Shown here: positions 17,852-41,117 of the stretch, piece by piece
Position numbering within the stretch: position 1 is the stretch's first letter
Layout of the letters: each line of letters opens with the position of its first letter
NCBI GenBank assembly: GCA_025617745.1
Contig: CM046858.1
Span: forward strand, 50,103,925-50,167,924
DNA length: 64,000 nucleotides
Direction of reading: 5' to 3'
Source of the DNA: Heliocidaris erythrogramma
Taxonomy: Eukaryota > Echinodermata > Echinoidea > Camarodonta > Echinometridae
Translations under genes and position numbers: made by a program
The notes under the pieces: model-generated
The model's database searches: none
What the model was told of the DNA's origin: nothing
What the model saw: the letters and a program-made list of their open reading frames with translations, nothing else

Positions 17852-18581
17852 CTATGTAGAACTATAGATAGGATTTTCTATCATTACAGAGTTATCAACC
17901 TCATTGCCCCTATGAGATTTATCAGGCATAGCGTACATTGCTTCTACAGCGTCACGCTTTCCGGCGCGATTTTGATCACGTCGGTTTTTATCTGGTAGCG
18001 CGTACAAGTCCTTTTTATCTCTAACAACAAAGTTAGATGCTTCCATACCGATCGGTTTCAGACGGTTCTTTGTGGAAGTACCGTATAGCGTAGCGTATTG
18101 CTCCGACGATGGCTTCCCCATGCTCGAGTATACCGTCATCGCTCTTCTGTCTGGCATAGCGTACTTCGGCGAAGGACCGTCTGCTTTGTCAGGCGAGGTA
18201 TACGTCATGGGTCTAGAAGAAGTGGATTTAGCTGAGAGGTCAGGCATGGCATAGAGAGCTGATGGGCCTGATATTGCTTCCTCCAAGAAGGATTTATTCT
18301 CCGTGTTCATGTAATAGGGTTCTTTATTGTTCATCGCTTCGGGGAGGTTCACGTACTTGCGTTCGTCCAGTTCATTTTCAGGGTCTTGCTCCAACTCTGT
18401 ACCCTTGCTCACATAATACGAATCTTCTTCTTTGTCGTCAGGTCTGTTAGATGGTGAGATATCGCCTGGATTTGTTGAGCTGATATTCGACATGTCAACG
18501 TATCCACGTTCGCGGCCATCGTTACCAGCACCGATCCGTGTTGTTGGCTGTTCGCCTGAAGAGGGCCCTTTTTTATTTTCC
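17852..18581 (-). CDS. Receptor last exon: tyrosine-rich cytoplasmic tail
   Basis: This 730-base exon starts after a TCTCTAG acceptor. Its first base completes an Arg codon begun in the transmembrane exon, followed by 242 residues and a stop. The tail has 15 tyrosines. Visible motifs are YVDM (27, YxxM type), YVNL (76) and YMNT (90) of YxN type, YATL (162), four YA(M/L)PD repeats (110, 140, 193, 216) and a final NPIY (236-239). YxxM and YxN are known SH2 ligands for PI3-kinase and Grb2, and NPxY binds PTB domains; their use here is inference. No kinase domain is present, so the protein must signal through partners. The YAMPD repeats match no named motif I know. Confidence 0.88.
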
Positions 18582-19595
18582 CTAGAGACAACAAGGTAGA
18601 AACAAAAAGAAAATATTTTTTTTAAGAATTCGTACACATTATTTAACGTTATTCGGTTTTCAGTTTTTTTATGTTTATATTCAGTTTACAGGCCACATTT
18701 TTCTATTTTCTTTAAATTATCTAAATTTGCCAGCAAATCTCTGGTGTACCGACTAAATTAACACACATCTTTTTCTTCTCCTACATATTTTCAGACTTGA
18801 ACCTACGTATAGTAACACTAAAATATAATGAAATGTACCGACAACAACACAAAAAACAAATAACTACTTTCGATATGTTAAAGTGAACATTTTATAAACC
18901 CGCTCACTTATCTTCTTTGAAAAAACGTATCGTCTAAAGAAATATTGGTGAATTTGCATAATGATGATGAAAAATGGGCTATACTTGAAGATAGAAATTG
19001 TTTGTTTGCATGCTTGTTTGTCGTATTAGAGCTGACATTAGGTAGATTACTTTCTTACACTGTCAGTCTCAAGATGTTGCCATTGTGATAGCATGAGCTG
19101 AGTAGCCATTAATTAATTTTTAATAAATCTTGTTTACTTTATATCATATTGCGTTCTCCTCCCATGGGCAAAATAAACATTGATATAAATACAATTGTTT
19201 TTTCATCATCTCCTTATCATTATCGAAATTTATCATCGTAAATATTTTATAAACACATTACATTTATAATTATAATGTTTGTCATCAAATCAATTCAATC
19301 TTTATTATCCATAACATGCATATTACAAATATGAATACGAAGGCAGATACAAATAATGTATTAAAAGGAGAAAAAATAAATAAAAATAAAACAATCAAAA
19401 CAATCACTGTGGATCTTTTTTTTTACATCATAGTGTCGAGGTAAAAAAATGGGTAAAATAATGCTCTGGTAGAAAACTGAACTGGATGTGTGTCGGCAAA
19501 CTTGGATGGCCCCCTCTCCTCCCCCCCCCCCCAAAAAAAATGGCTGCGCCACTGTTTTTAGCCCATCTTTGGTAACTATGACCACTAACTTGTAC

Positions 19596-19677
19596 CTTCT
19601 CCTGCAAGATATGACGATAACTACGATGGTAAGTATTAACAGAAATGTTCCTCCCCCACCGGCACCGGCATACAGTG
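19596..19677 (-). CDS. Receptor exon: transmembrane segment
   Basis: An 82-base exon with acceptor TTGCTTCCAG and donor GTACAAG, entering in phase 1 and leaving in phase 2. It encodes a Gly-rich turn (AGAGGGG), a hydrophobic stretch TFLLILTIVVIVI of about 15-20 residues, and a Cys-Arg-Arg stop-transfer. With the next exon the membrane border becomes C-R-R-R-E. This fixes the topology: SRCR and WSC modules outside, tyrosine tail inside. Confidence 0.85.
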
Positions 19678-19827
19678 CTGGAAGCAAGAAAAGAGCATCG
19701 TACTATGAAGATAAATGAAATATCACTGAAAGTAAAAAGAAAGAGAAATTAGTTCATTTTATCCACCTCCATTGTACATTTTAGTGTATATAAGCTGATT
19801 GTCAATGAATTCAAAGAATGTTCATAC

Positions 19828-19881
19828 CTATACTTCCTGTGTCTGCAGGCTTCGATGGAACGATTGATGTCAATACCGGTC
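19828..19881 (-). CDS. Receptor exon: short extracellular stalk
   Basis: A 54-base exon, phase 1 in and out, acceptor GGCGAAG and donor GTATGAA. It encodes about 18 Pro/Ser/Thr-containing residues (PVLTSIVPSKPADTGSI). Phase agreement with both neighbours is the main support; it has no domain of its own. The acceptor lacks a strong pyrimidine tract, though TTTTCTTCT lies just upstream. Confidence 0.65.
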
Positions 19882-20287
19882 CTTCGCCAGAAGAAAATGT
19901 AATCAAGGAAATAATGTCAAATGTAGTAGTATGTATAATATACATGTATACATATACGCACCTGACATAATAAAATACTCCGTTGAACACAAATATCGAA
20001 AGATATTGCACAATGTATTTCAAATTTTCATCAGGAAATCGTCCTTGATCAGATATCATTTCCTGATGAAGCCTTAAACAACGATATTAATGTTTAACTT
20101 AATATTTTACTTTGTCAAGTGTTTCTATTTTGTGAGTCACCGTGTGGCAGACTTTTTTAATTATATACATATATATATATATATATAATTGTAAGGAAAC
20201 AACATATACAACAGCTTTGGCAACTCTCGTGGAAATAATTATAATTGTCAGAAATGAAAATGAGAAAATAATGGTTACGTAGCTTAA

Positions 20288-21115
20288 AGGAGTGTTAACC
20301 CCAAAATGTAAATATAATTATGTTCAAAGGTGTAATATATTCTTAATCACTGGCCTGTATCACTTTGGAAATAAAATATCAGAAAAGGGTTTAAATCAAG
20401 ACATTCTAGCACACGGTATCATCTACTAACATTTTATAAGGGGCTGCCATTTTCTTGATACGGAGTTGTACATGAACAATTGTAAACCGCTCCGGTAGGA
20501 ACATATTTTTAATCCTATAGCTAATTTGCTTCTCTTCATTAAAAAAAAATCCCATATATGAAGGAAAATACATAAGAGGTGTATACATATATTCTAAAAT
20601 TTGAAAGTTATAGATTTCTTTTTAAATTCTCTGGTTTTTCTAAATAGAAATTGATTTCTTGTGCTTGCTTGGCAGAGCAGTACATAATTCATACAACCCG
20701 CATTCTGACTATTGAAGTCCATTATCTCAAAGCAGCTGAATGCATAGTTTGTCACTCAGGAAAGTTGTCATCCATAAATTTGAATTATTTTGCTCCGTCG
20801 CGTACGTCATAGTATCAAGAAAATAGATTTATATTTAGTAAACTAGTAATTTTCAAAGAAATATAAAACACATTTTTGTTTTTAGAATATATGTATATAG
20901 CTGTTAAATATTTTAAATCTCAAATGGAAATATCTTTATGTACAAATCAAGGAAATGGCAGCCCCCAGGTATCGCTAGCAGACGATAAATTTTGCTGAGA
21001 AAATCTTGATTTATTATAAATACCCATCTCGTATATAAAACTACGTAGGACAAGAAGAAGGAATAGATTACATCTTTGAACATAAGCACATTTATATTTG
21101 GAGGTTAATTCCCTC
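20288..21115. mobile_element. TTAA-flanked fold-back element
   Basis: TTAA lies at 20284-20287 and 21116-21119. The inward sequences are diverged inverted repeats over more than 150 bases; shared pieces include ATGTTCAAAG, TGTAAT and GGGGCTGCCATTT. No transposase is encoded. TTAA duplication is known for piggyBac and Kolobok families. It lies in the intron between the stalk and linker exons. Confidence 0.75.
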
Positions 21116-21123
21116 TTAAATCC

Positions 21124-21327
21124 AAGTTCCCCAGAGCTGTCAGAGCTGAAGATTTGTCAATATGTCGGTCAATTGAAGCTGGTGTCGCCGAAATCACTGG
21201 CCCGTCTCCGTGGTCTAGTGGTTAAGGCATTGGCGTTCTAAGTCAACGACCGGGTTTGATTCCCGACGGAGACATTTTTTCAGCCTCTGCAAAATTTTCA
21301 AAAAGGGAGGACAGCTCTGGGGAACTT
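21124..21327. repeat. Hairpin: 18-bp perfect inverted repeats around a tRNA-like gene
   Basis: AAGTTCCCCAGAGCTGTC at 21124-21141 is exactly inverted at 21310-21327. The 168 bases between hold a near-complete tRNA-like sequence. The left end lies only five bases from the TTAA of the preceding fold-back element, and the right end abuts the AAT tail of a LINE. Confidence 0.85.
21204..21273 (+). tRNA. tRNA-Arg(TCT)-like sequence or pseudogene
   Basis: A 7-bp acceptor stem is perfect (GTCTCCG / CGGAGAC). The D-arm has GTCTAGTGGTTAAGGC (A-box), and the anticodon stem TTGGC / GTCAA holds loop GTTCTAA, giving anticodon TCT. The T-arm (GGGTTTGATTCCC region) has one weak pair and TTT in place of the usual TTC. 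No long SINE body follows. It is either a solitary tRNA relic or the head of a short SINE; the inverted repeats around it make a normal tRNA gene less likely. Confidence 0.55.
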
Positions 21328-21655
21328 TGTTAATAATAATAATAATAATACCATACTTATAAAGCGCATATCACAATATGTCTCTATGCGCTGTAAGAAA
21401 AGAGAAAGAAAGGCATATAGGGTCAAAAACCTGCTCAACATTCCTCCTCATTTAACACTGGAAGGTACTTTTAAATGTTTTAAGACGCATCTTAAAATTA
21501 TCAACACTATCACAACTTTTAAGGTTTTCTGGCAATTTGTTCCAAAGTTCAGCTGATGCAGCCTGAAACGAGGGAGAACCATAGAATTTGGTATTAATAT
21601 GTGGAGTTGTGAGGAGAGACTTTTGAGAAGATCTGAGATTTCTTAAGCTACGCAA
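21328..21655 (-). pseudogene. 5'-truncated LINE (CR1/L2-like) 3' end
   Basis: A 67-codon frame on the minus strand (21452-21655) matches the C-terminal end of CR1/L2-type ORF2 (LLTTPHINTKFYGSPSF, AELWNKLPENLK, FKMRLKTF). About 120 bases of 3' UTR follow, ending GCGCTTTATAAGTATGG and an ATT repeat. That tail has the same layout as the end of the SINEs at 16080 and 48538. Confidence 0.8.
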
Positions 21656-21769
21656 CCATTATTCTCTCATTTTCATTTCTCACAATCATTTATTTATATA
21701 TATATATGTAGAAAAATAAAGTTCACAACATCATATAGAATACACACACAAGAAGCATGTTTTTATGAA

Positions 21770-21870
21770 AATTCACAAGCGCTTTCGATTTAATCTCTTC
21801 AGGTGAATGAGCCATTGATAGTTTTGACATGCTTTTATATACACGTATAGTACAGTAATATGCAAATGGG
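21770..21870 (-). ncRNA. Hammerhead-ribozyme-like core, Penelope-type remnant
   Basis: On the minus strand CTGAAGA (21796-21802), a GATT/AATC stem and GAAA (21783-21786) follow in order: the two conserved strands of a hammerhead core. Penelope-like retroelements are known to carry such motifs in their terminal repeats. I did not find a complete set of three helices with a cleavage site, nor a reverse transcriptase nearby, so this is a fragment at best. Confidence 0.4.
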
Positions 21871-21996
21871 CAATGTGTGTGGCATTGTCCAGTAGTTTTT
21901 TTGACGGCTTAATAAGTCTTTGTTTAAATCTTTGTTTAAATGTATTGAAGTTTAATGACCTAGGTATTATTACTCCAGTAAGAAGAGACAAATTAC

Positions 21997-22135
21997 CAGG
22001 AGATTGTGTAGCAATCACTGACGTTCCTCCTCCTGAGACGCTGATTGTCTTTTGATTCGTGGTTTGTTCATGTGTTGAGCTTAATGCATTTGATCCAAGT
22101 GTTGGAGTAGATAATCCTGGGTTTGTAATAATTTT
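21997..22135 (-). pseudogene. Truncated duplicate of the Thr/Ser-rich linker exon
   Basis: About 140 bases, together with flanking intron, repeat 22346-22480 with few changes, including the donor site after CAATCTCCTG. The 5' third of the exon with its acceptor is absent. With no acceptor it should not be spliced in. It records a local duplication of this receptor exon. Confidence 0.75.
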
Positions 22136-22345
22136 TGAGGAAAATACATAATTGGTGTTTGTATTTTAAGGATCATCATCATCATCGACAAACATTTCAC
22201 TTAAAATACGGCTGATTTACTGAAATATTAATATCTCGGTGGGAATACAGTAATAAATTTGTTAACGGTTGACATTAATATTATTACTTGTATTGAAGTT
22301 TTAATGACCTAGTTATTATTACTCCAGTAAGAAGAGACAAATTAC

Positions 22346-22510
22346 CAGGAGATTGTGTAGCAATCACTGACGTTCCTCCTCCTGAAACGCTGATTGTCTC
22401 TTGATTCGTGGTTTGTTCATGTGTTGAGCTTAATGCATTTGATCCAGGTGTTGGAGTAGATAATCCTGGGTTTGTAATAACTGTACTAACTGCTGAAATA
22501 GTCACGGAAA
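22346..22510 (-). CDS. Receptor exon: Thr/Ser-rich linker
   Basis: A 165-base exon, phase 1 in and out, acceptor CCGTACCAG and donor GTAATTT. It encodes 55 residues rich in Thr, Ser, Pro and Gly (segments SVTISAVSTV, LSTPTPGSNA, SVSGGGTSVI), expected to be an O-glycosylated spacer. Its start (FSVTI) resembles the exon at 37372-37530 (FSVII), which follows the other WSC exon in the same position. Confidence 0.8.
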
Positions 22511-22559
22511 CTGGTACGGAGAATGAAATGATTTGATAGTAAGAAAACAATAAAAAAGA

Positions 22560-23755
22560 AATATTTGTGCTATCGAACTATGCAGTGCGTATCAACATTG
22601 TACACCACACTAGATAATCGTGAACAGTACTACATGGACAAGAGTAAAGTGTAGTGTGCTCATGATAAAGATGCATTACCCATTTCTATGCTGCAACAGA
22701 TAATTCATCAACGTAGTTTGTTTTGTTTTTTTTATCTAGTCAAAATCTCAGATCTGTGTAGCTTAGGATGTAGTAAGGGCATGTGTTACAACAATTTCTC
22801 TTTCAGAAATTGATTTTGCACATTGGACTGTTAAAATGTGATTCACGAAGTTTGTGATTAAGATCATTGTCATCATCACACAGCCTTGGGCTCAGTTTTT
22901 TTTTTCTCATACTTTGCTGAGGTAAGCCTTTTACTCCATTAAAGTTATTCATGGTGAACAAAAAGTTATGTGGTTGCTATCTTTATCACTACAGCCCATT
23001 GTCCATTGTTTTGGAGTAACTTGTTCTTAAACACTGTGTCCTTCTATGTAAGCATGCATAATAGTAAACCACTGATTACATGTGTTATTCATGTGATGTT
23101 ATTAAACACACAAGATGGTACAATTAACCCATTGCCTACTGGAACCGGATGGTCCCTGTATTCAGTAGTCAATGAGTTAACAAACGGGTAGAGAGTATTA
23201 TTATTAGAGGTAAGAAGGGGGTAAGAAGGTATCATCAGAATGGATGTGTGCAGGTTTTTAGCATGTTCAGGGTTTTTATTCTCACGCTGCAACCTCTTAC
23301 AAAGAGATCAAACGACCTTCCAGAAACATATCAATAGGCTATTGATATCAACACATGAACTTATTAATGATGACTCCGAGACCATCATTTCGATCCATCG
23401 TCACATGTTTCCTAAAGAAATTATGTTTTCAGTTACATGTACCAGAAGGCCTATGTATCAAAAGTTACCCGTCATATTTATTGGACATATGCACTTTTTG
23501 CAAGACTTTGAAATGTTAACTTTATTATTTTGTGTCATAACATGTTTTGTGTCCAGGAACTATAATAGGATTAGAATCGCTTATTTCCATTTAAAAATAT
23601 GGCTTCATGTATGCAACGTAATAATTACCTGAGAATCAACAAGTCTCATGATGACATTTAATGAATTTAGTTCTATAAATTTAATTTGAGCAAGCCTCTT
23701 TTAATGAATTTTATGTTAATTCGCTATTTCACAATATACATTTTGCAAATCGACT
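22560..23755. other. Intron between linker and WSC exons
   Basis: No second gene is seen. The open frame at 23240-23632 (plus) shows no domain and is probably chance. Confidence 0.5.
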
Positions 23756-23758
23756 TAC

Positions 23759-24052
23759 GATTAAAAATGGCGATATTGCCTTTGCCTCCACAAGAGCTAG
23801 TTATATCTCCAGAACACATGTATTGACAATGTTCGTCTCCTACCCTCCCAAGACGGTCGTAGTCCGCAGTATTGTCACTGCAGTAGCATTCGTCACCGAG
23901 CGCTAATCCTGCGTACATGTAGACACCAGAACCCGTTGAATCCGTACAGAACTTGATGCACTTCCCAATTGTCATTTTATTATCTGTTTCCACCTCACCT
24001 GGCAGAGCTCGATTGGCGGCATTATCATTAAAGCATCCGATATAACGTTGAT
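23759..24052 (-). CDS. Receptor exon: WSC domain
   Basis: A 294-base exon, phase 1 in and out (acceptor TTTGTTTAG, donor GTAAGTC). It encodes one complete WSC domain of about 95 residues with all eight cysteines: RYIGCFND, GKCIKFC, ECYCSDN, HCQYMC and SSCGG, and the typical ending NIAIF. WSC domains bind carbohydrate in yeast stress sensors and occur in polycystin-1 and kremen proteins. A paralogous exon lies at 38085-38369. Confidence 0.93.
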
Positions 24053-24172
24053 CTAAACAAATGAAGTGTTAGCCGGAAAATAAATACAAGAAAAAAATCA
24101 TGTGAACTTCGCACTCCCAATGAATCTTACATATCATTCAAAATTCAGCTTCTGGTCAAACCCAGTGATAGG

Positions 24173-24987
24173 CCAGGAGTCTGTCCCGAAATCGTCACCC
24201 CATTTTACATATGAGATTTGACCCCTTAAAGTTGCTAAGACCACCCTATTGTGATTCACAAAAAGCTTGTCAGCTCGAACGAAGCCGCCTGGTTGGGCCC
24301 CCGGCCAAAATCGGGTCGATTTCAACCCATCTAACATATGCGCCAAACTTTGTCAGAAGGAAGGTGTATACTATACATTCCCAAAACACAAAACTGACAA
24401 AATTTTCCGTTTTGAGAAAGCAATACAATTTCACAATTTAATAGCCTATTAAGTTACAATACTCAAGATTGTACTAGTTAAATTTGACATGAATTGAATG
24501 AGACACTGGAGTTATTCAGTTTAAAATGCCTATAAATGGGTTTTCTTTACATCCAGAGCATTTTTGGCAGCAAAGCATGGTTTAGGGGCACTTTGGTGTT
24601 TTTACAGGGGCGTTTTACACCCCCAACCTGATGGAAAGTTTTGTAAGTTTTTATATTTTTGTAATGTACACCAATAATCTTCCTTCTGACAAAATTCGGT
24701 TCATGGGCCTTAAGGGGAAAAATTTGCCTAACCTTTTTTTGTCAGTTTTTGGTGTTTTGGTAATGCATAGTCATACACCTTCATTCTGACAAAGTTTGGC
24801 GCAAATGTTAGATGGATGGAAATCGATCCGACATTGTGTCCCCTTTTGAGGGCTCTGGGGGCCAAACCCAGTGGCTTCATTCGAGCTGACAACTTTTTTG
24901 TAAATTATAAATGGATAGTCTAAGTAACTTCAAGGGGTCAAATCTCATATTTATAATGGGGTGACTATTTCGGAACAGGCTCCCAGA
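24173..24987. mobile_element. Fold-back element with ~240-bp diverged arms, in a receptor intron
   Basis: Left arm about 24173-24410, right arm about 24730-24987, imperfect reverse complements sharing CCGAAAT.GTCACCCCA, GAGATTTGACCCCTT, TTGTCAGCTCGAA and GCGCCAAACTTTGTCAGAA. No ORF. It accounts for most of the intron between the WSC exon and the second SRCR exon. Confidence 0.8.
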
Positions 24988-25463
24988 CTATAAGAAGTTC
25001 AAAGAATATTAGCAGTAAAATGAAAATCGAAAGCGGCTCGTTGAACTTATTGTGAATTCACATATTTTTAGCCTCTATATGCCTTTTTTTCTTTCATGGG
25101 TAGGGGGTAAAGGCAACAAATTCAAATTTGATAATAACTTGATAGTTATTTATTTATTCGTATTATTTTTTTCTTATAATCATGTGTGTATTTTTAATAT
25201 ATCAAAATTAAACATCTAAAATATACAAAATGCCTAAAAAGAATTCAATTGAGTGATCAACCTAGGGGCCTCTTACATTCAAAATTTGCGTCTAAACAAA
25301 CTTCCCAAATTAAGCACAATTTCTAATGGTTAAACACTATTCTATCTGGATCGAGGAAACGTCAGCTTTATTTGTTCATTCCAATTATTACGTTGCCCTT
25401 CTCACGGCCTAATTTAAAATAAGTATCTATTTGTGTTGATAATACATTAATATATATATTTAC

Positions 25464-25544
25464 CGTAACATGTCGCGGCACCAGGTTTTGCATCTCCCGC
25501 ACATGAAATGGAGCGAAAGTCACAAGCATCTATTACCGCCTCAT
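25464..25544 (-). CDS. Receptor exon: SRCR domain, second half
   Basis: An 81-base exon, too short for an ORF scan, phase 1 in and out (acceptor GACAAGCAG, donor GTAAATA). Joined to the next upstream exon it reads ICKG-DEAVIDACDF, then ISCAGDAK and AATCY, giving the last three cysteines of an SRCR domain. The usual Trp-Gly-x-His motif is absent, so this half is diverged. Two-exon coding with six cysteines is the pattern of group A SRCR domains. Confidence 0.75.
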
Positions 25545-25839
25545 CTGCTTGTCAGATGGATTGATAGAGAAATAAATCACCGACAATGTGATAATTTTCT
25601 ACTCAGAGCAATATCGTTCCTTTCATATTTAAAGACTTTGCTTTTTAGAAAAATCCTTAAAAACTATACATGAGAGAAAATAATAATCTCAAATACCAAA
25701 TTAGGTAAAATGATAAGGAAATTTACGATCTCAGGATTATTTTAGGCCTATATTTCGCAAACTTCCATTTGTATTCTTGTAAAAGGGAGTAGCAATCATA
25801 TTTGGCAGTAGCCTATAGCTGATAGCAAGAAATGTATAC

Positions 25840-26058
25840 CTCCTTTGCAGATCAAGCGTCCTAGGGGCGTCAAGCTCTCGCTTCCAAACGTAGATTTTCG
25901 GATGTTCCTGTTCGCGCCGGAGAATCCCAACTGCCTACAGATCACAATCACCTCAGATATGTTAAGGTGTTGTCCACAGACAGCCTGCCAGGGTCCGTTA
26001 TCTGCTTTGTATTCTACAGTACCCTCGTTCGGCGATGACCCATTGAATAACCTCCAGT
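25840..26058 (-). CDS. Receptor exon: SRCR domain, first half
   Basis: A 219-base exon, phase 1 in and out (acceptor GAAAATAG, donor GTATACA). It encodes WRLFNGSSPNEGTVEY, WQAVCGQ, the hallmark EVIVICRQLGF, and ends LICKG. SRCR domains are secreted or cell-surface ligand-binding modules, much expanded in sea urchins and other invertebrate deuterostomes. Exons encoding the N-terminus and signal peptide were not found between here and 37 kb. Confidence 0.93.
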
Positions 26059-26932
26059 CTATTTTCAAAAGAACAAATAATCAAGCGTGATCATGTAATA
26101 ACAACTCTTATTGCCTTAATAATGGGGGTTACAAATTTCTTAAGAATTTATACTGCTGCCCTACAGCCCATAGCCTCCACGATACGTTATACTATTACAT
26201 TATTACTCTTTAGGTCATAGTGTCGTCCCTACAAAGCCTTTTATTAGCTTTGGTTGCATCATGAACAAGGTGCCGGTAGGGATGACGACAAAAATTAAAA
26301 GAAGGGGGCTCAGATAGAAAAAAAAAAACCTCAGAAAATGAGGAAAGGTTTTTCACATTTCTCGGAAAATCTCAAATATTTTTTTCTACCTTATTCATTA
26401 TCTTTGATTGTTTTGTTTTTATTATCGGGGCATGTTTGGCAGTTCATAAGGGACCACTGTCTCCCAACCCGGGAACACCGCCAGAGGCTGCCAGGATGTA
26501 CTGGTCAAGGGTAAAATTGAAATGAGAATTAAACCCTGGGAAATGTCCATTTTTTTTAATACGCACTGTACATCGTTTTACATCAAAATCATGCTGAGGG
26601 GGCAAAATAGATTATTTCAAGAAAGAAAATTTTAGATTATTGTGCTTAATTTGCCCCCCCCCCCCCCCCCTCTCCTTTGATAGAGGGAAAATCTGGTAGA
26701 GTTTTACAAGGTTGGGATACAATGCGCCTACATGCGTGTATATTTATAGCGACCATGTGAGAAGATTTCAGTGTTGGAATGGTGAAACCTCGCCTTTTAG
26801 CGCACTAAAAAGTTGAGAGGCAATACCGCATTAACTTCCTTTTCTTGGGGGGGGGGGGGCTAAACATATGGAAGCAAGCATCTGCGATCGACAAGGTTCC
26901 TGAAATATGTTAAGAAACGTTGGGTCTATTAA
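26059..26932. other. Intron or intergenic stretch
   Basis: No exon recognised. A C-run at 26654-26670 and a G-run near 26850 are present. If the cassettes at 26 and 41 kb belong to one gene, this is intron. Confidence 0.5.
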
Positions 26933-27247
26933 AGGGAGTGGCAAGTCGTAATCCATGGGCCTGACCAGTTGGCCTGACTCGGGAAAATTCGGATACAATC
27001 AGGTCCAATCGTGCGCTACCGAAGGAATGTTATTGCCGGATTCCTCGCGAATCCCTCCATACGCAACCGACCAATGAGATTCAAATACTGGAATAAAAAG
27101 AACGCGTGATCTTGTTTACTCAAATTTGGGTCAATGTGCGAACTTTTATTAGCTGCGCACGATAAATTGAAGTCGCTTTGAACTTTGATCCAGAGAAACG
27201 AGCAGCCAACTGTAAAAGCGCCCATAGATTGCGACTTGTCGCTCCCT
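26933..27247. mobile_element. TTAA-flanked MITE (copy 1)
   Basis: TTAA at 26929-26932 and 27248-27251 flanks ends AGGGAGTGGCAAGTCG and CGACTTGTCGCTCCCT. The terminal inverted repeats extend about 28 bases (ending near CCATGGGC / GCCCATAG). A similar copy is at 43131-43457. The 69-codon frame inside appears in both copies only because the DNA is conserved; it has no initiation context or domain. Confidence 0.9.
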
Positions 27248-28239: not shown

Positions 28240-28670
28240 CAGCGTTCCCACTAGCCGATTTTTAGTCGCGAGTTAAGGCGGGTTGTGGCGAGTTGACTCA
28301 TAACAGCACCCGTGATAATCGTGCGGAGCTCTCCATGTAACTCGGGAGAACTCTTGCTAACTCGGCGCGACTCGGCCTAACTCGGCGCAACTATGCAACA
28401 ACTCAGTTAAAGGTTCCGATAGGTTTCCAAACAGCACCCGTGATAAGGTGAACATGTTCAAAATTTTACCCATCTCGGTGCGACTTGCCCTCAACTCGTT
28501 TGAACTTGTCATAAATGATGTTCGCATTAGTCGTAGTGAGCTCGTGATGAACTCTTCGTAAATCGCACGGTTACTCGCCACTTTAAGTTATAACTCTAGT
28601 ATTAAATATCATAATTGATAGGATTGAAGTAAATTGAATATATCATAGAGAAATGTGAGAAAATTACAAT

Positions 28671-28741
28671 GCCCCGACCGGGATTCGAACCCGGGACCCT
28701 GGATTACATGACCAGTGCTCTACTAACTGAGCTATCCGGGC
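28671..28741 (-). tRNA. tRNA-like sequence (minus copy of dimer)
   Basis: Reads GCCCGGATAGCTCAGT at the start (A-box), a loop CATGTAA that would place TGT (Thr) at the anticodon, a perfect T-arm CCGGGTTCGAATCCCGG, and a TCGGGGC end. The acceptor has one G-G mismatch, the anticodon stem is imperfect and position 33 is A. Probably a pseudogene or SINE head rather than a working tRNA. Confidence 0.6.
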
Positions 28742-29154: not shown

Positions 29155-29225
29155 GCCCGGATAGCTCAGTTGGTAGAGCACTGGTCATGTAATCCAGGGT
29201 CCCGGGTTCGAATCCCGGTCGGGGC
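29155..29225 (+). tRNA. tRNA-like sequence (plus copy of dimer)
   Basis: Same 71-base body as at 28671-28741 in opposite orientation, with one difference in the D-loop (TTGG instead of TTAG). It shares the acceptor mismatch and atypical anticodon arm. Confidence 0.6.
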
Positions 29226-29690
29226 ATTGTAATTTTCTCACATTTCTCTATGATATATTCAACTCTAGTATTGTACGCGTTTCCAAGAGTTGAGAACAAG
29301 CACTGCGATTTTATTGCGAGTTACATCGAGTTGTACACGAGGTTGACGCGAGTTAAGGACGGGTATGACGAGTGACAAGGAGTTTACATGAGCCTCTCCC
29401 GAGTTTCTTGTTAGCCTATTTCGAGTGTAAAAGTGCAACCTAATCACCTGCTGATGCCAGCCTGTCTTGCATTAAAACAATGCCCAAAGATTCCCAAAGA
29501 TATTTCTTATCTCAATCGTACGTAACTCATACACAACTCGTACAAAGTTTGTAAAACGATCGTGATAACTCGCGGGAAGATCGATACACGTCGTACGTAG
29601 ATCATCGTAACCCGGTGTGACGTACTGAGATTGTACCGTGCTGAAATTGCGCTTGCGCATGCGCACACACGATTTGCGCACTTCGTAAAC

Positions 29691-33208: not shown

Positions 33209-33726
33209 ATGGATCGAGAGAGAGCTGATATAGAACGCGTCACCATCCAGTTCCTCTGCAGATTCACGGATGTTTACTTGGATGCCGTAGCAGCTGTAGA
33301 GCCTACCCAACCTGCTGAAGAAAGGCCTGGACCAAGCAGCCGGCCTGCATCATGGTGGAAGATGTGTGCCCATGCCAAAGGAGGTAGAGAATGTGTGTGT
33401 GTTGCCATGTCCGCACCTGCGTCATGACTGCTCAATACTTCACTGATGCATTTCTAAATGGCAATGTCTTGGCTGCATGCATGGCAGCAAGCAACAATGT
33501 ATTTCCAAGGGACATTCCGAGGTTGAATGAATCGTACCGGCATTATACCTACAAACAATTCACGTATATATATTCACTAGGCCTAATATTCACCATGGGT
33601 ACTTGGAGCAGGAAACAGGAGAGTTGTTCCATCATGTGCTACACTGCGGATAAGGTATGCCTATCTATCCCCAACGAGGGCTTACAAGGGCTTTGTCAAT
33701 GGAGTACAAGATTGAAATCCATCTAA
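33209..33726 (+). pseudogene. Broken P2RX7_C (P2X7 ballast-like) domain gene
   Basis: Across three frames the region gives, in order, a CAHAKGGRECVCV / CVCC segment near 33370-33400, CVMTAQYFTDAFLNGNVLAA (33421-33480), a YRHYTYKQFTYIYSLG stretch (33537-33585), and LGAGNRRVVPSCATLRIR (33601-33655, other frame) followed by YKGFVNG. This order of cysteines, aromatic-rich helix and R-x-V-x-P-S-C is that of the cytoplasmic ballast domain of P2X7 receptors and its many stand-alone relatives in invertebrates. At least two frame breaks or unrecognised introns interrupt it. It is inside the TTAA element and so probably its cargo or part of its own protein. Confidence 0.6.
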
Positions 33727-34689
33727 CATCAACACTGGTCTTGATCTTTTTTATGTCTGCTTTTATTGTTGAAATTTAGATCTGCTGGACATAGAACTGT
33801 TATCCTTCTTTAAAAAATTGTTTATTATAGTTCCTGTTTATATTCACCTTTTTCTTGGTGATTGTAGTATGTATGTACCAAAGAAAGCATTTTCTGTGTG
33901 TAATCATTTAACATAATGTTTACGTTAACATTTATCAGAGAGGAAATATATTCATGTCATTTGAAACAAACAAAAAATGTTATCTGATAAAGGGTTTCCA
34001 TTATGACATTGTATAAACTTCATTTTAATCTATTTCCCCCTGTGTATTTCAACACATTCCATGACCATGAATATGCATGTCTTCTGTGATGTTTTTCTAT
34101 TTATGATGAATATTTAGTCTGATTTGTCATGCTGTTTTAGCTGAACTAGCAGTCCATTGGGTTTGCTACATGTTGTACATTGTGTGAAGTGAGATGCACA
34201 TGAATTACATAAACTTCAATAAGAATTTGGTGATCATAAAAAGTGGTTGATCAAACTGATTGTAATATATTGTATCAATGCATGTAGTTACAACCAAACA
34301 ATATCACTTGCCAGCGTATAAGTGAATGTGTGTGATGTACATTTATTAACATATCTTTTGTACCTGTGTTCCTGACTGTAATCATTGTATTTAGGTATTT
34401 ATGGTATTATAAACTGCAATATGTCAATGTTGCAATATTCAGTGAAAATACCCTTGCCATCATATTCCTGTGTGAATGTCCATAATATAATTCAATATGA
34501 AAACTATACATATGTTCAAAAAAAATCTGCCAGTGAACGTTGCCATTTTCAGTTGAATGTTTGGTAGCCTTTGACAATGTGATCACACCACATAGTGAAG
34601 TTGTTTTCCTTCCAAGATTTACTTTTATTGTGATCTGTTTACACTGTTTGTTTCAGAATTTGCTTATGCATAGATCCACAAACCTTTCC

Positions 34690-35140
34690 TGAAGTATGCC
34701 TACATGTATACTGTTGAATGTATAGTTTTACACTTCTGAGCTGATTTTTGTATTATATTTATTACAGTTTGATAAACATGTATTCTACATCCACAAACTT
34801 GCCTTGAAACATGCACATTTAGTGTTGAAATAATAGTTTTGCAATATGAAGTTGATTTCTTCTCATACTAGTTGTATAGATTTATCAGAAGTTATATAAT
34901 TTTTAAGAAACGTATGTATTATGCATACAGGGACATTTCTGTTTTTTTATATGCCATTTGCTATTCCATATGGTATGCCTATATACTGTTGAAAGTATAG
35001 TTTTATACTACTGAGCTGACTTTTGTATATATTTTAGTGTTGACAATATAGTTTCAATGTTCAGTTGATTTTTACTCTCACTTGGGTAGTTTTATTCCAA
35101 GTTATACATTATTTAAAAGAAACTTAAAAAGTATTACATA
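34690..35140 (+). repeat. AT-rich imperfect tandem repeat
   Basis: Segments around 34695-34755 and 34974-35030 share TATGCCTA...TATACTGTTGAA.GTATAGTTTTA and GAGCTGA.TTTTTGTAT; the following ~100 bases also correspond. The period is about 280 bases. Likely untranslated or spacer DNA of the transposon. Confidence 0.6.
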
Positions 35141-35324
35141 CAGGAACACCTTTTCTACTTTTCTTTTTCCTTGTGATTTGCCATTTGCAATGGCACTGCA
35201 TGTAACATGTAAGGAAGTACTAGTAAATGAAGACAGCATGAAAAAGTACTCTTCATTATGTGTACGTGTCAGAAGTTTTGAAGTATTGTAATCTACATTC
35301 CTTTTATTTCATTTTATTTTTGTA

Positions 35325-35494
35325 CAGTGGAGCATCATTAATGAACTTCTTGGGACCAAGGAAATAACCTCTTTATATCGAAACCTTGTTATACCAGGGC
35401 TAAAAACAATAGAATACAAAAAAGTGGGACTTGCAAAAATACTGTCTTGTAATGAGTATGTTATACCATTGTTCTTTATAAGGAGGTTCCACTG
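35325..35494. mobile_element. TA-flanked mariner/pogo-type MITE
   Basis: TA at 35323-35324 and 35495-35496 flanks ends CAGTGGAGCATCATTA and a right end that reads CAGTGGAACCTCCTTATAAA in reverse. The TA target and CAGTGGAAC-like ends fit Tc1/mariner/pogo. 170 bases, non-coding, nested within the TTAA transposon. Confidence 0.75.
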
Positions 35495-35534
35495 TACAAG
35501 GTATATATGTGGAGGAAGGCATATGGAGTGAGAT

Positions 35535-35950
35535 AGGAGAGAAGAGAAACAGGGGAGAGAACAAGGGAGAAAAATTATCAAGGTCATGAGAGAAAGAGAG
35601 AGTGAAAGATAAGATAGAGAAACGGAACGAGCTAGAATCAGGGCTGTCAAGTAAAGTTTTCCTCCTCAACAGCTCAAGTTTATCAATACAAAATTAAGAT
35701 TAATCAGGCCCCCTTTTTATTTCTTATTTTAAAAATTTCTGTCAACTCTTTGCACGATGGCCATTCACGAAGTTAGTGTCCAGTTTTTAAAGATCGATTC
35801 CCCTCTTTCGAAATCGGCCAGAGAAGAGAAAGAGGAGGGAGAGAGGAAGACAGAGAGAGAGAACAAGGGAGATAGGTCATGAAAAAAAGAGAGAAAGAGA
35901 GAGTGAAAGATAAGATAGAGAAACGGAACGTAAGTGAGAACAAACGAGAA
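35535..35950 (+). repeat. Duplicated GA-rich segment
   Basis: About 100 bases with GAGAGAACAAGGGAGA, AGAGAGAGTGAAAGATAAG and ATAGAGAAACGGAAC occur at 35545-35630 and again at 35840-35930. Frames here are purine-tract artefacts. Confidence 0.75.
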
Positions 35951-36442
35951 AGTGGAAGGGAATAATAGTGGGTGTAAGGCCATCGCCAGGGTTCACCTCC
36001 GGGGCGCACCCGGCGCTGGCGACCGTAGCCCGTTGAGGTACACTGTACGATTTGCAAATGGTGTGCAGCTCAAGCTGATACAACACGAACTTTTTATTCA
36101 AACTTTCCCTGGAGGAAACAAGCAGCCCACGTCCAAATTTATTTCTTTGTGTTCAATCCACAAATTGTACGCGCTGTGGATACGTAATCTCGTCTGACTG
36201 TCTCTCGTCTCGACCTCCATTTCGTTCGAAAACCGCTATTATTTTCGTGCCTCTAGTCTAGGCATAGGCCATAGCATGGAGTATCCCGAAACTGAAACAT
36301 AGCGTATTGCTGGCAAGCTCAGCTCTCGCCCCTGCGCTGGCAGGCTATTTACAAATTGTCCGAGCGATTCCGGAAATCTCCGAACTTGCCTTAGGTGGGA
36401 CAGCATAGAAACACACGGGCACCGACGACTGACCGCCTTTAA

Positions 36443-37371
36443 AAGAAACCTCAGCCTAAACGGTAAATGTATCTTAAAGATGTTATTGACTATAATATCA
36501 GATGAACTAAACAAATTCTCAACGAAATGTACCAGAAAGTCGTAAATATTCTTAGCATAAACAAGCCTTATGTTTGCGTCGCCGTTTTCTTGCACATCCC
36601 ACGAATGTGTGTCGTATGAGGCAAGATTGGATTCATTGGTCAACATTTTCAGGATATTACATGTTATTTTTCAGAAAAGTGAATTATTAAACGGCAATAT
36701 CACTTTACATGTAGATTAAAAAGAGTTTCAAAGCTGGTGATTGCCGACAATTTTCTTTTAAACAGGGGTGTCATTCTTGTCTAGGGTGACATCCTGACCC
36801 TGATATATCATGCCATGAGGACTACCCTTGCTATTTTCAGAAGTAAAAATACCATTTACCACTTTAAATTGTATTGAATCACGTGATTCCAGAGATGATT
36901 TTTGTTGCCTCTTTAAGCACTTAGGCGTCAGCTCACAAGAGCGGTCTGATGGGCCTTCTAAAAAGTTATCTGAGGGTTCACCACACCGACAACCCACGAA
37001 AGCGACACGTCTGTCTGTAGGATCCTCTAACTTTTCTGCGGATTCATGAGACCGGCATTTTCGGCCTCGGAGGCGGTCGGTCTACTGCGTTGCCGAACTT
37101 TATAAGCGTAATCGGGTATGATTATCAAACGTTACGTTATGGTAAAACAGCCTACCCCCTTACTTGTTAAGCCCCCCCCCCCCCCCGGAAATTGTTAATC
37201 TTTCTTTTTTATTCTTATTTGGATTTCAGATATTCTTATATTTATAAAACTCTTTAGAACATGTAAAGAACATTTTTCGTTTCATTTCGTTGCCTATCAG
37301 AGATTTTAGATTTACTGCCCCACTCTCCCACCTTAAAGATCTCTGGTGCCGCCCCTGCTGATAATGATTAC
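36443..37371 (-). other. Unassigned stretch with a 107-codon open frame
   Basis: The minus frame 36758-37081 is open for 107 codons and ends in TAA. It includes RGRKCRSHESAEKL, FVGCRCGEPSDN and SCELTPKCLKRQQ; five cysteines and many charged residues, no transmembrane segment, no ATG before residue ~40. It lies where the 3' exons of the upstream receptor cassette would be expected, but lacks the tyrosine motifs of the known tail. It could be an exon, a transposon piece or chance. A C-run lies at 37172-37186. Confidence 0.3.
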
Positions 37372-37530
37372 CAAACGTTGTCGATTCTGCTGATGTTGGG
37401 TCAGTAATTAGAACTGTGGTCAACTCACGGTCTGTAGTAGGATCAGCTCTTGTTGTAATCGTCGTTGTCATCAAATTTGTTAAAGGTGGTACTATCGTTT
37501 CTATGTCTGGTTGCGGTATTATCACTGAAA
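37372..37530 (-). CDS. Upstream cassette exon: Thr-rich linker
   Basis: A 159-base exon, phase 1 in and out (acceptor TTGCTATTCAG, donor GTAATCA). It encodes 53 residues, beginning FSVIIPQPDIET and rich in Thr (MTTTITTRADPTTDRELTT, 19 residues). It occupies the same place after a WSC exon as 22346-22510 and starts with a similar sequence, so the two are paralogous. Confidence 0.72.
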
Positions 37531-38084
37531 CTGAATAGCAAAATAGAAAGGAAAAAAAATACCATTCAGCGGCTTGAATACACTGGTGCAATGCACCCAA
37601 AAAAAAAGAGTTACAGGATCTTCAAAGCGCTGTGTCAATTTTTTACCGTAACATGACACTTTTTGATAAGTAACAAACCAGCAATCAAATAGTGATGATT
37701 TCGCAGATAAAGGTTCTTTGAAAATCACAAAAGGCTACACATTTACTCATCATACAGGTACTTAGCTATATACCAACATAATTTGTTCCATGTCTGCTAA
37801 AACAATAACGATTAGAGAAGAAACAGGTTATTGTTAATACCACATTGAATTTTACAATGTAATAAACCTCAGGATAAAAACTCTTCTTCTTGAAATAGGT
37901 ACAATACTATAATTATATAATTATATGATTATATTATTATTATTTGCAAGCTTTGAACATAAAACACAAATGGGATTGCAAAAGATAGATATATTATCCA
38001 TTTTCATTAATGTTTGTCTTGACCGTCTATAGTGCCCCCCCCCCCCTCAAAAAAAAAATTGTACATATATAGTGCCTAATGTAC

Positions 38085-38369
38085 GATTGAAAATGGCGAT
38101 TTTGTCGCTACCACCGCATGAGCTGTATATATCTCCAGCACAATGAAATTGACATCCATCATCTCCTACCTTCCCATTGCGATCATACTGTGCACTCGCA
38201 TCACCGCAGTAGCATTCTGTGCTGTTCCTTACCCCTGCGTAAACATACTCTGGTGTGAAGATGCAGTAATTGATGCACTGTTCAATGGTAAGTTCATCAG
38301 ATTTGGTCCAGTTGCCTTGCAGGACCCGACTGTTTTCCCCGTCGTTGAAGCATCCAAGATAGCGTTCAT
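38085..38369 (-). CDS. Upstream cassette exon: WSC domain
   Basis: A 285-base exon, phase 1 in and out (acceptor TTTGCTCTAG, donor GTACAT, a weak donor). It encodes a complete WSC domain with eight cysteines: RYLGCFND, EQCINYC, ECYCGDAS, GCQFHC and SSCGG, ending KIAIFN. It is clearly paralogous to 23759-24052 (shared VGD..CQ..C.GDI.SSCGG). Confidence 0.92.
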
Positions 38370-40487
38370 CTAGAGCAAAACAACAATCACTTGTTTTAAA
38401 CATTATTTTAGTGGGAGTTCTGTCCATTTGTATATTTTTTTGCAGATAATTCATGCCTACGAGGATCACACTTCAATTTTAATAATTGGCAAGAGCATTT
38501 AGGGAGAAGGACTAGCCCATCAATGGCAAAGTTGAGCGTTACATTGCACACAATTTGTCCGATCATAACATCCAACCACTAAATCTACACCCTTGCTAAT
38601 GAATGAAAAAAAAAGCAACAGAGTGACATGAACGGTAAAGTTTAAACCAAAGAATTCCCCCCCCCCCCAAAAAAAAGGAGGAAAAAAAAGGGTTGAAGGT
38701 GAACTATTTACAATACTCGTTTCTATATACTTAGTAATATAGTTATGGTTATTGCCCAAGGATCAAAATAATTTTGACTTTGAAACGGACCTAAAACGGC
38801 GTAGTACAGTTCTTAGCCCCTTAATCATGTCAAATGATTTTTAATATTTTCACCCCAAAAGTCTGATATCATTTTGATTACGAAAAAACAGGCGAAAAGA
38901 TGACCTCAATTTTTTTTTAAAGCTATCCGGTCAAAAATATCCCCCTCCTCCCGCCTTGCATGCTTTCCAAGTAATATCTTCAGTGTCCTTCCTTTGCAAA
39001 CTATTCATGTATCTGTAAGTGGTCTGTAAAAGCATAATGTAGCTTTAGATGAACTAATCCGAAGGACGTAATTATCTCAATTTCATTAAAGGTGTTACTC
39101 GGAGATGTACAAACAAATCAAAATGCAATAAATTTGGTATCAACGGAGAGGGGAAGATGCCCTAAAACATTTCATCAACATTCGAAATCCATAGGCTTTC
39201 ATAAATTAATATTATTCTGTTTCAAATGTGTGCCAAAATATTCGCATATTTTTGCCCCGCGAGCAGTTTCTTTTTCAATCTTGGAAATGTGACGTAATAC
39301 TCGGGACACACTTGCTTGCTTCTAGCTAGCTCACGATCACGTCAATACAGCGCCCGCACATAACGTTCACGGTTCGAGGTAAGCTACTGATTTCTTCCAA
39401 TCTTTGAAAATCTTGTAAACAAAATGTCTGATTTTGGCCCTGATTCAGATGTTAGAACCTGGAATCACACCGTCATTCCATCAATCACTGGGTGAATCAC
39501 TGCAGCAGCCACACACACATATACGATTCATACAGCTACAGTACAGTCAAGTCGTATACCGTAAGCTAGCTGTCCCGAGAATGACGTCATTTTTCTAGTG
39601 CAAGACTTATCGCTTTCGTGGCTCATCTGAGACCCTGTCAGGGGTCTTGAAAAAAAGTCCTGATAATCTTTTTGAACAAGCTTACATCTATAAAATTTAA
39701 TTTCATCGTATTCTTTGGGGGTTAGCTATCTAAAAATGTATAATTTGTCCTATTTCTTATTTTATGGGACATTTCTCCGGTTATCTGCTTTAAAAAAAGA
39801 AGAAACGTAGTACGCTTGTTCTTTTTTTTTAATTGTATGTTTTATTAGTTTGTTCTTAATCGTAAGTATAGTACGGGTATAATAACTTACATCGGCAAAG
39901 ACGAAATAGAACCCCAAAGTAATGTCTGATTTAAATTTTAAAAAGCAACATACAAAAATATTAAATAAATAGTATCCCGAACATCTTTGCAAGAAATGAA
40001 CCCAACTAATAATAATAATATTTACATCAACATTATATAGCGTGTAATTATGTCTCTGAGCGCTGAATAGTATTATTTCAGCCGCAGATTTAGATTCAAT
40101 TAATCTATTCATAACGGTTACCAATTTACTTCAAGATTAGCAAATGTAAACCTATGTCCTGCCAATGGATACGAACAATGTACTTTGCGATCCTTAGTTT
40201 GGATAAATACCGACTGGACCACGACCTCAAATACTTCACATTAGTGAGACATCTCAGAAAAAAACAGTTTTTGCCATTTATATTTGTCTTCACTATATTA
40301 TTTTAGGTGTGTCATTCATAATAAAAAAGGTAATTTTTAGTAAATTAGTACGATAACTACACATGTTCTAAGATATCTTACGCCAGCCACTCGAATGAAT
40401 GTCATTGCTCTGAAAGAAAACTGATCATAATGATTATGCATACTTATGGTTGTCACACCTCTAATTATTCACACCTCTAATTATTAC
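38370..40487. other. Intron of the upstream cassette
   Basis: About 2.1 kb with no exon recognised. It holds a decayed SINE (40010-40250) and, near 39270-39650, sequence with somewhat higher GC, including GCTAGCTAGC-like motifs. Confidence 0.55.
40010..40250 (-). mobile_element. Decayed SINE of the 9113/48538 type
   Basis: On the minus strand: a GTTCG...GGCAGGACA piece, TTTACATTTGCTAATC, GTAAATTGGTAACC, then CAGCGCTCAGAGACATAATTACACGC and ATATAATG, ending in an ATT repeat (40010-40022). The order matches the SINE at 48538 but with many substitutions, so the copy is old. Confidence 0.55.
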
Positions 40488-40571
40488 CGTAACAAACAGC
40501 CGCTCATGCGTTGTGTTCACCAGACACGCTAGATGGGCACTGAGAAGCCATTGTGCAGTCTTGCAGGTTAT
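40488..40571 (-). CDS. Upstream cassette exon: SRCR second half, with in-frame TGA
   Basis: An 84-base exon, phase 1 in and out (acceptor TTTTTCTGAAG, donor GTAATAA). Joined to the preceding exon it reads FTCAG-DNLQDCTMASQC, then SSVSGEHNA, a TGA stop at 40504-40506, and AAVCY. Length, phase, three cysteines and ending match the exon at 25464-25544, so the frame is right and the stop is real in this assembly. Either this cassette is dead, the exon is skipped (it is symmetric), or the TGA is an allele or error. Confidence 0.7.
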
Positions 40572-40609
40572 CTTCAGAAAAATGGATTTGAATTTCGTTT
40601 GTGATTACA

Positions 40610-40740
40610 GATAAACATAAAAGGTAGAAGAAGTAGAAGAAGAAAGAAGAAAAAGACTGAAGAAGAAAAAGAAGAATGAAAAGAAGGAGGAGAAACAGAA
40701 GAAGAAAAAAAAAGAATGAAGAGGAAAAGGAAGGAGAAAT
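40610..40740 (+). repeat. GAA-rich purine tract
   Basis: Imperfect AGAAGAAGA repeats within the short intron between the two SRCR half-exons. The Ser/Phe-rich frames across it are artefacts. Confidence 0.85.
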
Positions 40741-40895
40741 AGGAAGGAATACTGTGATTAAAATCTGTGATGAACATTTCATCCATTTACCATAAAATTT
40801 GGATGCTAGTCTGCTTTTACTTCATTGAACTGTAATCGATAACTAGAGGATGACTTTGAATAATGTGCATGTTCAAAGTAGGTGCAGGTTTATAC

Positions 40896-41117
40896 CTCCA
40901 GCGCAGGTGAAGTCTTTATTTTCAGTCATTAAATCGATTCCAAAAGGCGAGCTTCGGATGTTCCTATTCGCACCATTGAAACCAAGCTGCCTACAAATCA
41001 CCTTCACTTCATTGATACCAAGGTTGGTTCCACAAAGGGGGTGCCATGTCGTTCCATGATCGGAAGAGTAATAGACTTTGCCTTCACAGCGCGAAGATCC
41101 ATTTACCAATCGTACCT
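40896..41117 (-). CDS. Upstream cassette exon: SRCR first half
   Basis: A 222-base exon, phase 1 in and out (acceptor CTTGTGCAG, donor GTATAAA). It encodes VRLVNGSSRCEGKVYY, HPLCGTN, EVKVICRQLGFNGANRNIR and ends FTCAG. The stretch CRQLGF.GANRNIR is shared with 25840-26058, marking the two as duplicates. No signal peptide or earlier exon was found to the right. Confidence 0.92.

What the first reader, a model, noticed from the sequence alone, without database searches (positions are those of the whole stretch)
17852..41117. Undescribed-looking receptor architecture: [SRCR-WSC-Thr/Ser linker]n - TM - tail with YAMPD repeats
Seen: seven exons with consistent splice sites and phases give SRCR(group A, two exons)-WSC-linker-stalk-TM-cytoplasmic tail. 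The tail has 15 tyrosines with YxxM, YxN, NPxY and four YA(M/L)PD repeats. Known: SRCR and WSC are extracellular ligand/glycan-binding modules, and SRCR families are greatly expanded in echinoderms. Inferred: a single-pass pattern-recognition or adhesion receptor signalling by tyrosine phosphorylation through SH2/PTB adaptors. I know of no named family with this exact module order and YAMPD tail.
Basis: partly seen in the sequence, partly recalled or inferred. Interest (0 to 1): 0.85.

Follow-up and report, generated by a model that had tools for sequence, protein, structure and literature searches.

The report
SRCR-WSC receptor with YxxPD-repeat signalling tail
This stretch of an animal genome encodes most of a cell-surface receptor that joins two known ligand-binding modules to an inside tail with five near-identical tyrosine motifs, probably docking sites for signalling adaptors; the module pairing is already known in sea urchins, and one of the two copies here carries a stop codon.

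Summary
Eleven minus-strand exons with AG/GT ends and matching phases lie exactly between 41117 and 17852. The second SRCR-WSC-linker module plus stalk, TM and tail is open for 542 codons; Pfam finds SRCR (3.3e-12) and WSC (1e-15). The first module is not intact: its second SRCR exon has an in-frame TGA (40504-40506) and its WSC exon a weak donor. So '[SRCR-WSC-linker]n' has one intact unit here, and no signal-peptide exon could be told from chance.

The motifs use different synonymous codons in mostly unrelated flanks: motif-level constraint rather than a recent DNA repeat. YxxP is the Crk/CrkL SH2 consensus; best mechanism: ligand clustering, Src/Abl-type phosphorylation, Crk docking.

'Undescribed architecture' is only partly right: a 2024 survey counts 36 WSC domains among sea-urchin SRCR genes (PMC10855680). 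The tail may be the new part; no animal proteome could be searched. The phylum was not tested.

The parts
40896..41117 (-). SRCR1 exon a (module 1)
   Evidence: AG|GT ends, phase 1-1; Pfam SRCR 3.3e-9 for the ORF alone
40488..40571 (-). SRCR1 exon b; in-frame TGA at 40504-40506
   Evidence: 84 nt, phase 1-1; adding it with X at the stop extends the Pfam SRCR match to profile position 99 of 100, 43.7 bits
40504..40506 (-). in-frame TGA inside module 1
   Evidence: GGT (Gly) at the same ungapped position of SRCR2 exon b
38085..38369 (-). WSC1 exon, 8 Cys, weak donor (a better-scoring in-frame donor would end the exon at 38112)
   Evidence: Pfam WSC 1.8e-17; donor scores -5.52 and -0.47; Cys count
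37372..37530 (-). Thr/Ser-rich linker exon 1
25840..26058 (-). SRCR2 exon a
   Evidence: Pfam SRCR 8.8e-12
25464..25547 (-). SRCR2 exon b
   Evidence: completes six-Cys count
23759..24052 (-). WSC2 exon, 8 Cys
   Evidence: Pfam WSC 6.9e-17; Kremen-1 in PDB 4e-14 for the SRCR-WSC piece
22346..22510 (-). Thr/Ser-rich linker exon 2
21951..22131 (-). 181-nt tandem copy of linker exon 2, 98% identical, probably not an exon
   Evidence: none of the five AGs in 22300-22131, tried in phase 1, gives an open frame into it
19828..19881 (-). stalk exon (54 nt)
19596..19677 (-). transmembrane exon
   Evidence: KD-19 2.29; only hit of a TM-exon scan on this strand in 17852-41117, none on the other strand
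17852..18581 (-). cytoplasmic tail exon with stop; five YxxPD motifs
   Evidence: nearest AATAAA 657 nt past the stop

Best explanation
A gene on the minus strand encodes a single-pass receptor whose intact part here is SRCR (group A) - WSC - Thr/Ser linker - stalk - TM - 245-residue tail (counted from the Arg-Arg-Arg). Shown: the exon structure in the DNA, the domain matches, the TM segment and the five-fold YxxPD array. Inferred: SRCR and WSC together bind a polyanionic, protein or glycan ligand; the linker works as an O-glycosylated spacer; clustering by a multivalent ligand lets Src- or Abl-type kinases phosphorylate the YxxPD tyrosines; these then recruit several copies of a Crk/CrkL-type adaptor, so that the tail is a membrane-bound analogue of the p130Cas (BCAR1) substrate domain that drives Rac/Rap-dependent adhesion, movement or engulfment. 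YVDM and YVN/YMN could add PI3K and Grb2 docking, but these motifs are at chance frequency. The upstream module 1 is a degrading or allelic copy in this assembly.
For: Eleven exons with consistent ends and phases. SRCR and WSC matches, with CD163, LOXL2 and SCARA5 SRCR and Kremen-1 WSC among solved structures. The two modules diverged under constraint: dS 1.23, dN 0.49 over 195 aligned codons; pN/pS 0.59, bootstrap 0.48-0.73. YxxPD 5 seen, 0.094 expected, 0 of 20000 shuffles. Motif codons vary at wobble positions (Y TAT/TAC, A GCC/GCT/GCG, P CCT/CCA, D GAC/GAT) while the 24-nt flanks match at 1-10 of 24 over ten pairs. YxxP is the Crk/CrkL SH2 consensus, DCBLD1/2 receptors use such arrays (PMC6029619), and the specificity is pre-metazoan, with choanoflagellate transmembrane proteins carrying YxxP arrays (PMC5043372).
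Against: No transcript, homologous tail or animal proteome could be examined, so splicing and conservation of the tail are unproven. No signal-peptide exon stands out from the control strand. The Crk-type ligands whose measurement is described in the passages are pYDVP peptides; I saw no test of pYAMPD. One pair of motif flanks (tail-exon residues 110 and 140) shares 3 of 8 residues on the left and 2 of 8 on the right, so an old duplication is not excluded. The gene may be failing as a whole, as module 1 carries a stop. Four of ten donors (SRCR1a, linker 1, SRCR2a, TM) are mediocre, 85th-89th percentile, and WSC1 is at the 40th.
Confidence: 0.5

Rival explanations
1. Two tandem paralogues: module 1 is what is left of a neighbouring gene (or dead exons), and the receptor of module 2 has one SRCR-WSC unit with its own undiscovered first exon.
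For: In-frame TGA and weak WSC1 donor; 11.3 kb between the modules (exon ends); 253 of 359 (70.47%) sea-urchin SRCR genes are in tandem clusters and loss of an SRCR domain through a stop mutation is inferred there (PMC10855680, section read).
Against: No TM exon found for module 1 between 41117 and 26059; all module ends are phase 1, so one transcript is possible; no signal-peptide candidate between the modules on this strand even at a loose donor cut-off, while the candidates, weak as they are, lie upstream of module 1.
Confidence: 0.4
2. One gene with both modules, in which the TGA-bearing exon is skipped or ended early at an in-frame GT before the stop, giving a shortened SRCR1.
For: The exon is 84 nt with phase 1 at both ends; an alternative donor before the stop scores 1.72 against 0.60 for the normal one.
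Against: Skipping removes three cysteines of SRCR1 and the early donor removes the last one (positions).
Confidence: 0.2
3. Inhibitory or activating immune receptor of ITIM/ITAM type, as in the amphioxus WSC-bearing BbLcLRR.
For: BbLcLRR, a WSC-containing receptor, is phosphorylated by Lck and associates with phosphatases (PMC8211107, passages); 15 tail tyrosines.
Against: No ITAM; YxxL/I/V 2 observed, 1.565 expected; read directly, neither YVNL nor YATL has the I/V/L two residues before Tyr that the ITIM quoted needs.
Confidence: 0.12
4. Mechanosensor like fungal Wsc1 (WSC head, Ser/Thr spring, TM, tail).
For: Same order WSC - Ser/Thr-rich region - TM - tail (the Wsc1 order is recalled); Wsc1 is described as a mechanosensor (abstract starts listed).
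Against: Linker plus stalk is only 73 residues; animals have no cell wall; the tail is unlike what I recall of Wsc1 tails (not compared).
Confidence: 0.08

Closest known systems
SRCR superfamily mosaic genes with WSC domains of sea urchin and P. australis (PMC10855680)
   Same: SRCR and WSC in one gene; group A SRCR; tandem organisation and loss of an SRCR domain by a stop mutation
   Different: The order, the tail motifs and the exon layout of those SRCR-WSC proteins were not visible to me; in the sea-urchin cluster studied there each SRCR is in one exon, with one exception, here two
DCBLD1/DCBLD2
   Same: Transmembrane receptor with a multi-YxxP tail binding CRK/CRKL (PMC6029619)
   Different: Ectodomain is CUB-LCCL-discoidin; seven (DCBLD2) or eight (DCBLD1) intracellular YxxP
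p130Cas/BCAR1 substrate domain
   Same: Repeated YxxP in a region without detected domains
   Different: BCAR1 is a focal-adhesion protein with SH3 and FAT-like domains and 15 YxxP (PMC5043372)
Choanoflagellate transmembrane proteins with cytosolic YxxP repeats (PTSG_05573 and others)
   Same: Transmembrane, several YxxP in the cytosolic region (PMC5043372)
   Different: No SRCR or WSC mentioned in the passages seen
Kremen-1
   Same: WSC domain, single-pass protein (recalled)
   Different: Kringle-WSC-CUB, no SRCR
CD163/WC1
   Same: SRCR receptor with tyrosine-motif tail
   Different: Group B SRCR arrays, YEEL/YREM-type motifs (PMC2906472); no WSC (recalled)
Amphioxus BbLcLRR
   Same: WSC-bearing receptor with phosphotyrosine tail (PMC8211107)
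   Different: LRR ectodomain, ITIM or ITIM-like tail

Membership tests
SRCR superfamily, group A | Pfam SRCR match above cut-off | tested here: met
   47.0 bits (module 2) and 43.7 bits (module 1, X at the stop), cut-off 26.1
SRCR superfamily, group A | six conserved cysteines | tested here: met
   met by SRCR2 (six Cys); SRCR1 has seven and fails the strict count
WSC domain proteins | Pfam WSC match; eight Cys (the number is recalled) | tested here: met
Kremen | Kringle and CUB beside WSC | tested here: not met
   the spliced 542-aa protein has no Kringle or CUB match at E<=1
p130Cas/BCAR1 | N-terminal SH3 and C-terminal FAT-like domain | tested here: not met
   no Pfam match at E<=1 in the tail
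p130Cas/BCAR1 | repeated YxxP substrate region | tested here: met
   five YxxP, all YxxPD
DCBLD | CUB-LCCL-discoidin ectodomain | tested here: not met
   none of the three among the four families listed for the spliced protein; the 5' end of the gene is not known
ITAM receptors | YxxL/I x6-12 YxxL/I | tested here: not met
   0 found
Crk/CrkL-binding receptors | phosphorylation-dependent binding of the Crk SH2 | not testable with these tools
   needs bench work
CD163/WC1 | group B SRCR arrays | tested here: not met
   SRCR2 has six Cys and SRCR1 seven, neither with eight; group B is given as 6-8 Cys in one paper and eight in another, so the count alone is not absolute
any secreted or membrane receptor | signal peptide | tested here: inconclusive
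   loose scan: 5 starts (3 frames) on the minus strand upstream of module 1, 0 between the modules; 3 and 1 on the plus strand over the same stretches

The most novel reading that the evidence does not exclude
A receptor class in which a BCAR1-like Crk-docking array is fused directly to an SRCR-WSC pattern-recognition ectodomain, so that ligand binding drives Crk-dependent engulfment or adhesion without a partner such as integrin or an ITAM chain, kept in shape by selection on the YxxPD motif while the rest of the tail drifts.
Probability: 0.3. Interest if true: 0.62.

Novelty: new variant of a known kind. Interest (0 to 1): 0.42.

Why it matters
Invertebrate SRCR genes are numerous and their signalling is, as far as I recall, mostly unknown. 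A tail with a clear, testable adaptor motif would link one of them to a known pathway (Crk to Rac/Rap) and would suggest a direct route from pattern recognition to cytoskeletal response. It would also be an animal counterpart of the YxxP-array transmembrane proteins reported from choanoflagellates (PMC5043372).

Tried and rejected
Searching the window's own genome: none held. Relatives of the tail in viral contigs: 13 pattern matches, none a relative; that collection is not expected to hold animal genes. The tail in PDB: 3 matches, E 0.66-0.93, unrelated molecules. Structure of WSC2: mean pLDDT 42.3, unusable, so no fold search was made. Signal-peptide exon: the first scan used a donor cut-off of 1.5 that only 3 of the model's own 10 donors would pass (scores), so I repeated it at -1 (9 of 10 pass): 5 starts in 3 frames on the minus strand upstream of 41117, 0 between the modules; the plus strand gave 3 and 1 over the same stretches. 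One minus-strand candidate, 41415-41298, lies in a GT-repeat. None accepted; an exon with another phase or donor would have been missed. A further module or a second TM/tail: none by tblastn of the domains at E<=1, none convincing by tblastn of TM, stalk and tail pieces at E<=20, where chance matches were numerous, nor by a Cys-rich exon scan. That scan itself missed SRCR2a and both SRCR b exons (under its four-Cys limit) and gave two extra minus-strand candidates, 37065-36799 (its ORF has no Pfam match) and 41444-41298 (not sent to Pfam), against three on the plus strand. Linker copy 21951-22131 as another exon: rejected. The TGA coordinates printed by my scripts are off because of an indexing slip; 40504-40506 follows from the ORF listing. 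The first dN/dS script timed out and was rewritten.

Papers: 'YAMPD' gave 3 papers that are irrelevant by title; SRCR with YxxP 1 paper, on TMPRSS2, listing only; SRCR with 'WSC domain' 2 papers; SRCR with 'WSC' 5. In the passages or sections that I saw of those five, I found no SRCR-WSC protein with this tail. Further searches gave listings, of which I opened only the papers named in the report: 5 papers; 4; 5; 16, 12 listed; 33, 8 listed; 19, 6 listed. The library lacks most subscription papers and I read no supplementary table.

Full report
WHAT IS THERE. On the minus strand there are eleven candidate exons: SRCR1a, SRCR1b, WSC1, linker 1, SRCR2a, SRCR2b, WSC2, linker 2, stalk, TM, tail. 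Ten begin in phase 1 and the tail in phase 2; all eleven are preceded by AG and the first ten are followed by GT. The ten donor scores lie between the 40th and 97th percentile of all GT on the strand; the lowest is WSC1, and four more (SRCR1a, linker 1, SRCR2a, TM) are at the 85th-89th. An AATAAA lies 657 nt past the stop.

DOMAINS. The two SRCR first exons match Pfam SRCR at 3.3e-9 and 8.8e-12, the WSC exons match WSC at 1.8e-17 and 6.9e-17. Joining the second SRCR exon raises the SRCR score from 37.4 to 43.7 bits (module 1, X at the stop) and from 45.7 to 47.0 (module 2), which supports the two-exon splice, more clearly in module 1. For the spliced 542-residue protein four families are listed at E<=1, and only SRCR and WSC pass their cut-offs. 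The SRCR-WSC piece finds CD163, LOXL2 and SCARA5 SRCR domains and the Kremen-1 WSC domain among solved structures. SRCR2 has six cysteines (group A); SRCR1 has seven, the extra one near its start, in the region of C1 (count; the C1 assignment is by eye). A 2024 survey names a seven-Cys, C1-bearing 'group C' found mostly in sponge, with two genes in sea urchin and one in sea star (PMC10855680, section read); whether SRCR1 belongs there was not tested.

THE PROBLEM WITH MODULE 1. The second SRCR exon of module 1 contains TGA in the frame that joins its neighbours, at 40504-40506, with five codons left before the exon end; the ungapped partner codon in module 2 is GGT. With the weak WSC1 donor this suggests a decaying copy, an allele or an assembly error. 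It could be bypassed by skipping the symmetric 84-nt exon (three cysteines lost) or by an earlier in-frame GT (the last cysteine lost). Loss of an SRCR domain by a stop mutation is inferred for a sea-urchin paralogue (PMC10855680, section read). Only one intact SRCR-WSC-linker unit can therefore be claimed.

CONSTRAINT. Between the modules, SRCR plus WSC give dS 1.23 and dN 0.49 over 195 aligned codons (gapped codons and the TGA left out); pN/pS 0.59, bootstrap 0.48-0.73 in 500 resamples. SRCR1b against SRCR2b is poor (6 of 27 identical, aligned without gaps), and the linkers are not conserved (13 of 48).

TAIL. The tail has 245 residues from the Arg-Arg-Arg, with 15 tyrosines. YxxPD occurs five times (expected 0.094; 0 of 20000 shuffles reach it), YxxP five times (89 of 20000), ITAM none; YxN, YxxM, YxxL/I/V and NPxY are at chance. 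The five motifs differ in synonymous positions, and their flanks match at 1-10 of 24 nucleotides over ten pairs; one pair (tail-exon residues 110 and 140) still shares 3 of 8 residues to the left. Recent DNA duplication would carry the flanks along; selection on the motif after an old duplication, or repeated origin of it, fits better. This is the strongest new result about the tail. No Pfam family matches it, and the three PDB matches have E 0.66-0.93.

MECHANISM. YxxP is the binding consensus of the Crk/CrkL SH2 domain, and DCBLD1/2 show how a receptor with seven or eight YxxP sites works: Src-family and Abl kinases phosphorylate them and CRKL binds (PMC6029619, abstract and passages). The specificity is pre-metazoan, and choanoflagellate transmembrane proteins with YxxP arrays are known (PMC5043372, abstract and passages). 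I therefore commit to a Crk-type docking tail at about 0.5. The downstream Rac/Rap step and the engulfment role are inference from general knowledge.

KNOWN OR NEW. The survey reports 36 WSC domains (8.96%) for the sea-urchin SRCR genes and lists WSC in its top-five table for S. purpuratus and P. australis (PMC10855680). So the pairing is not new. Whether any of those proteins has this order and tail I could not see. Papers seen: PMC10855680, abstract, passages and three sections; PMC6029619, PMC5043372, PMC8211107, PMC2906472, PMC3927609, PMC6767649, PMC3927612 and PMC8242945, passages only (with abstract text where a passage fell in it); the Wsc1 papers and the TMPRSS2 paper as listings with abstract starts only. 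Motif assignments for PI3K (YxxM) and Grb2 (YxN) are recalled.

LIMITS. No animal genome, transcript or proteome was available. The gene's 5' end could not be identified: signal-peptide candidates upstream of module 1 (5 starts in 3 frames) are about as many as on the control strand (3), and there is none between the modules. It may lie beyond the window, so more modules may exist upstream.

Noticed in passing
9833-12964 (-): Intact 1043-codon retrotransposon frame, endonuclease plus reverse transcriptase (RVT_1 1.6e-36), the longest stop-free run without N in the window, downstream of the receptor gene.
   Followed up: partly
4549-5668 (-): Broken reverse-transcriptase remnants of another element; RVT_1 is weak (8.4e-5 and 0.19, below its cut-off) in the two of three pieces tested, 4549-5052 and 5053-5352.
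   Followed up: partly
21951-22131: Recent 181-nt tandem copy (98%) of linker exon 2, start-to-start spacing 349 nt; keeps the donor but no usable acceptor was found.
   Followed up: yes
21204-21274 (+), 28670-28741 (-), 29155-29226 (+): tRNA-Arg(TCT) and two tRNA-Thr(TGT) within the span of the gene model: the first between linker 2 and stalk, the others between the two modules.
   Followed up: no
36758-37081 (-): Cys-containing 107-codon frame without a Pfam match, also picked up by the exon scan; may be repeat-derived.
   Followed up: partly
40896-41117 with 40488-40571 (-): SRCR1 has seven cysteines, as in the 'group C' reported mainly from sponge (PMC10855680).
   Followed up: partly
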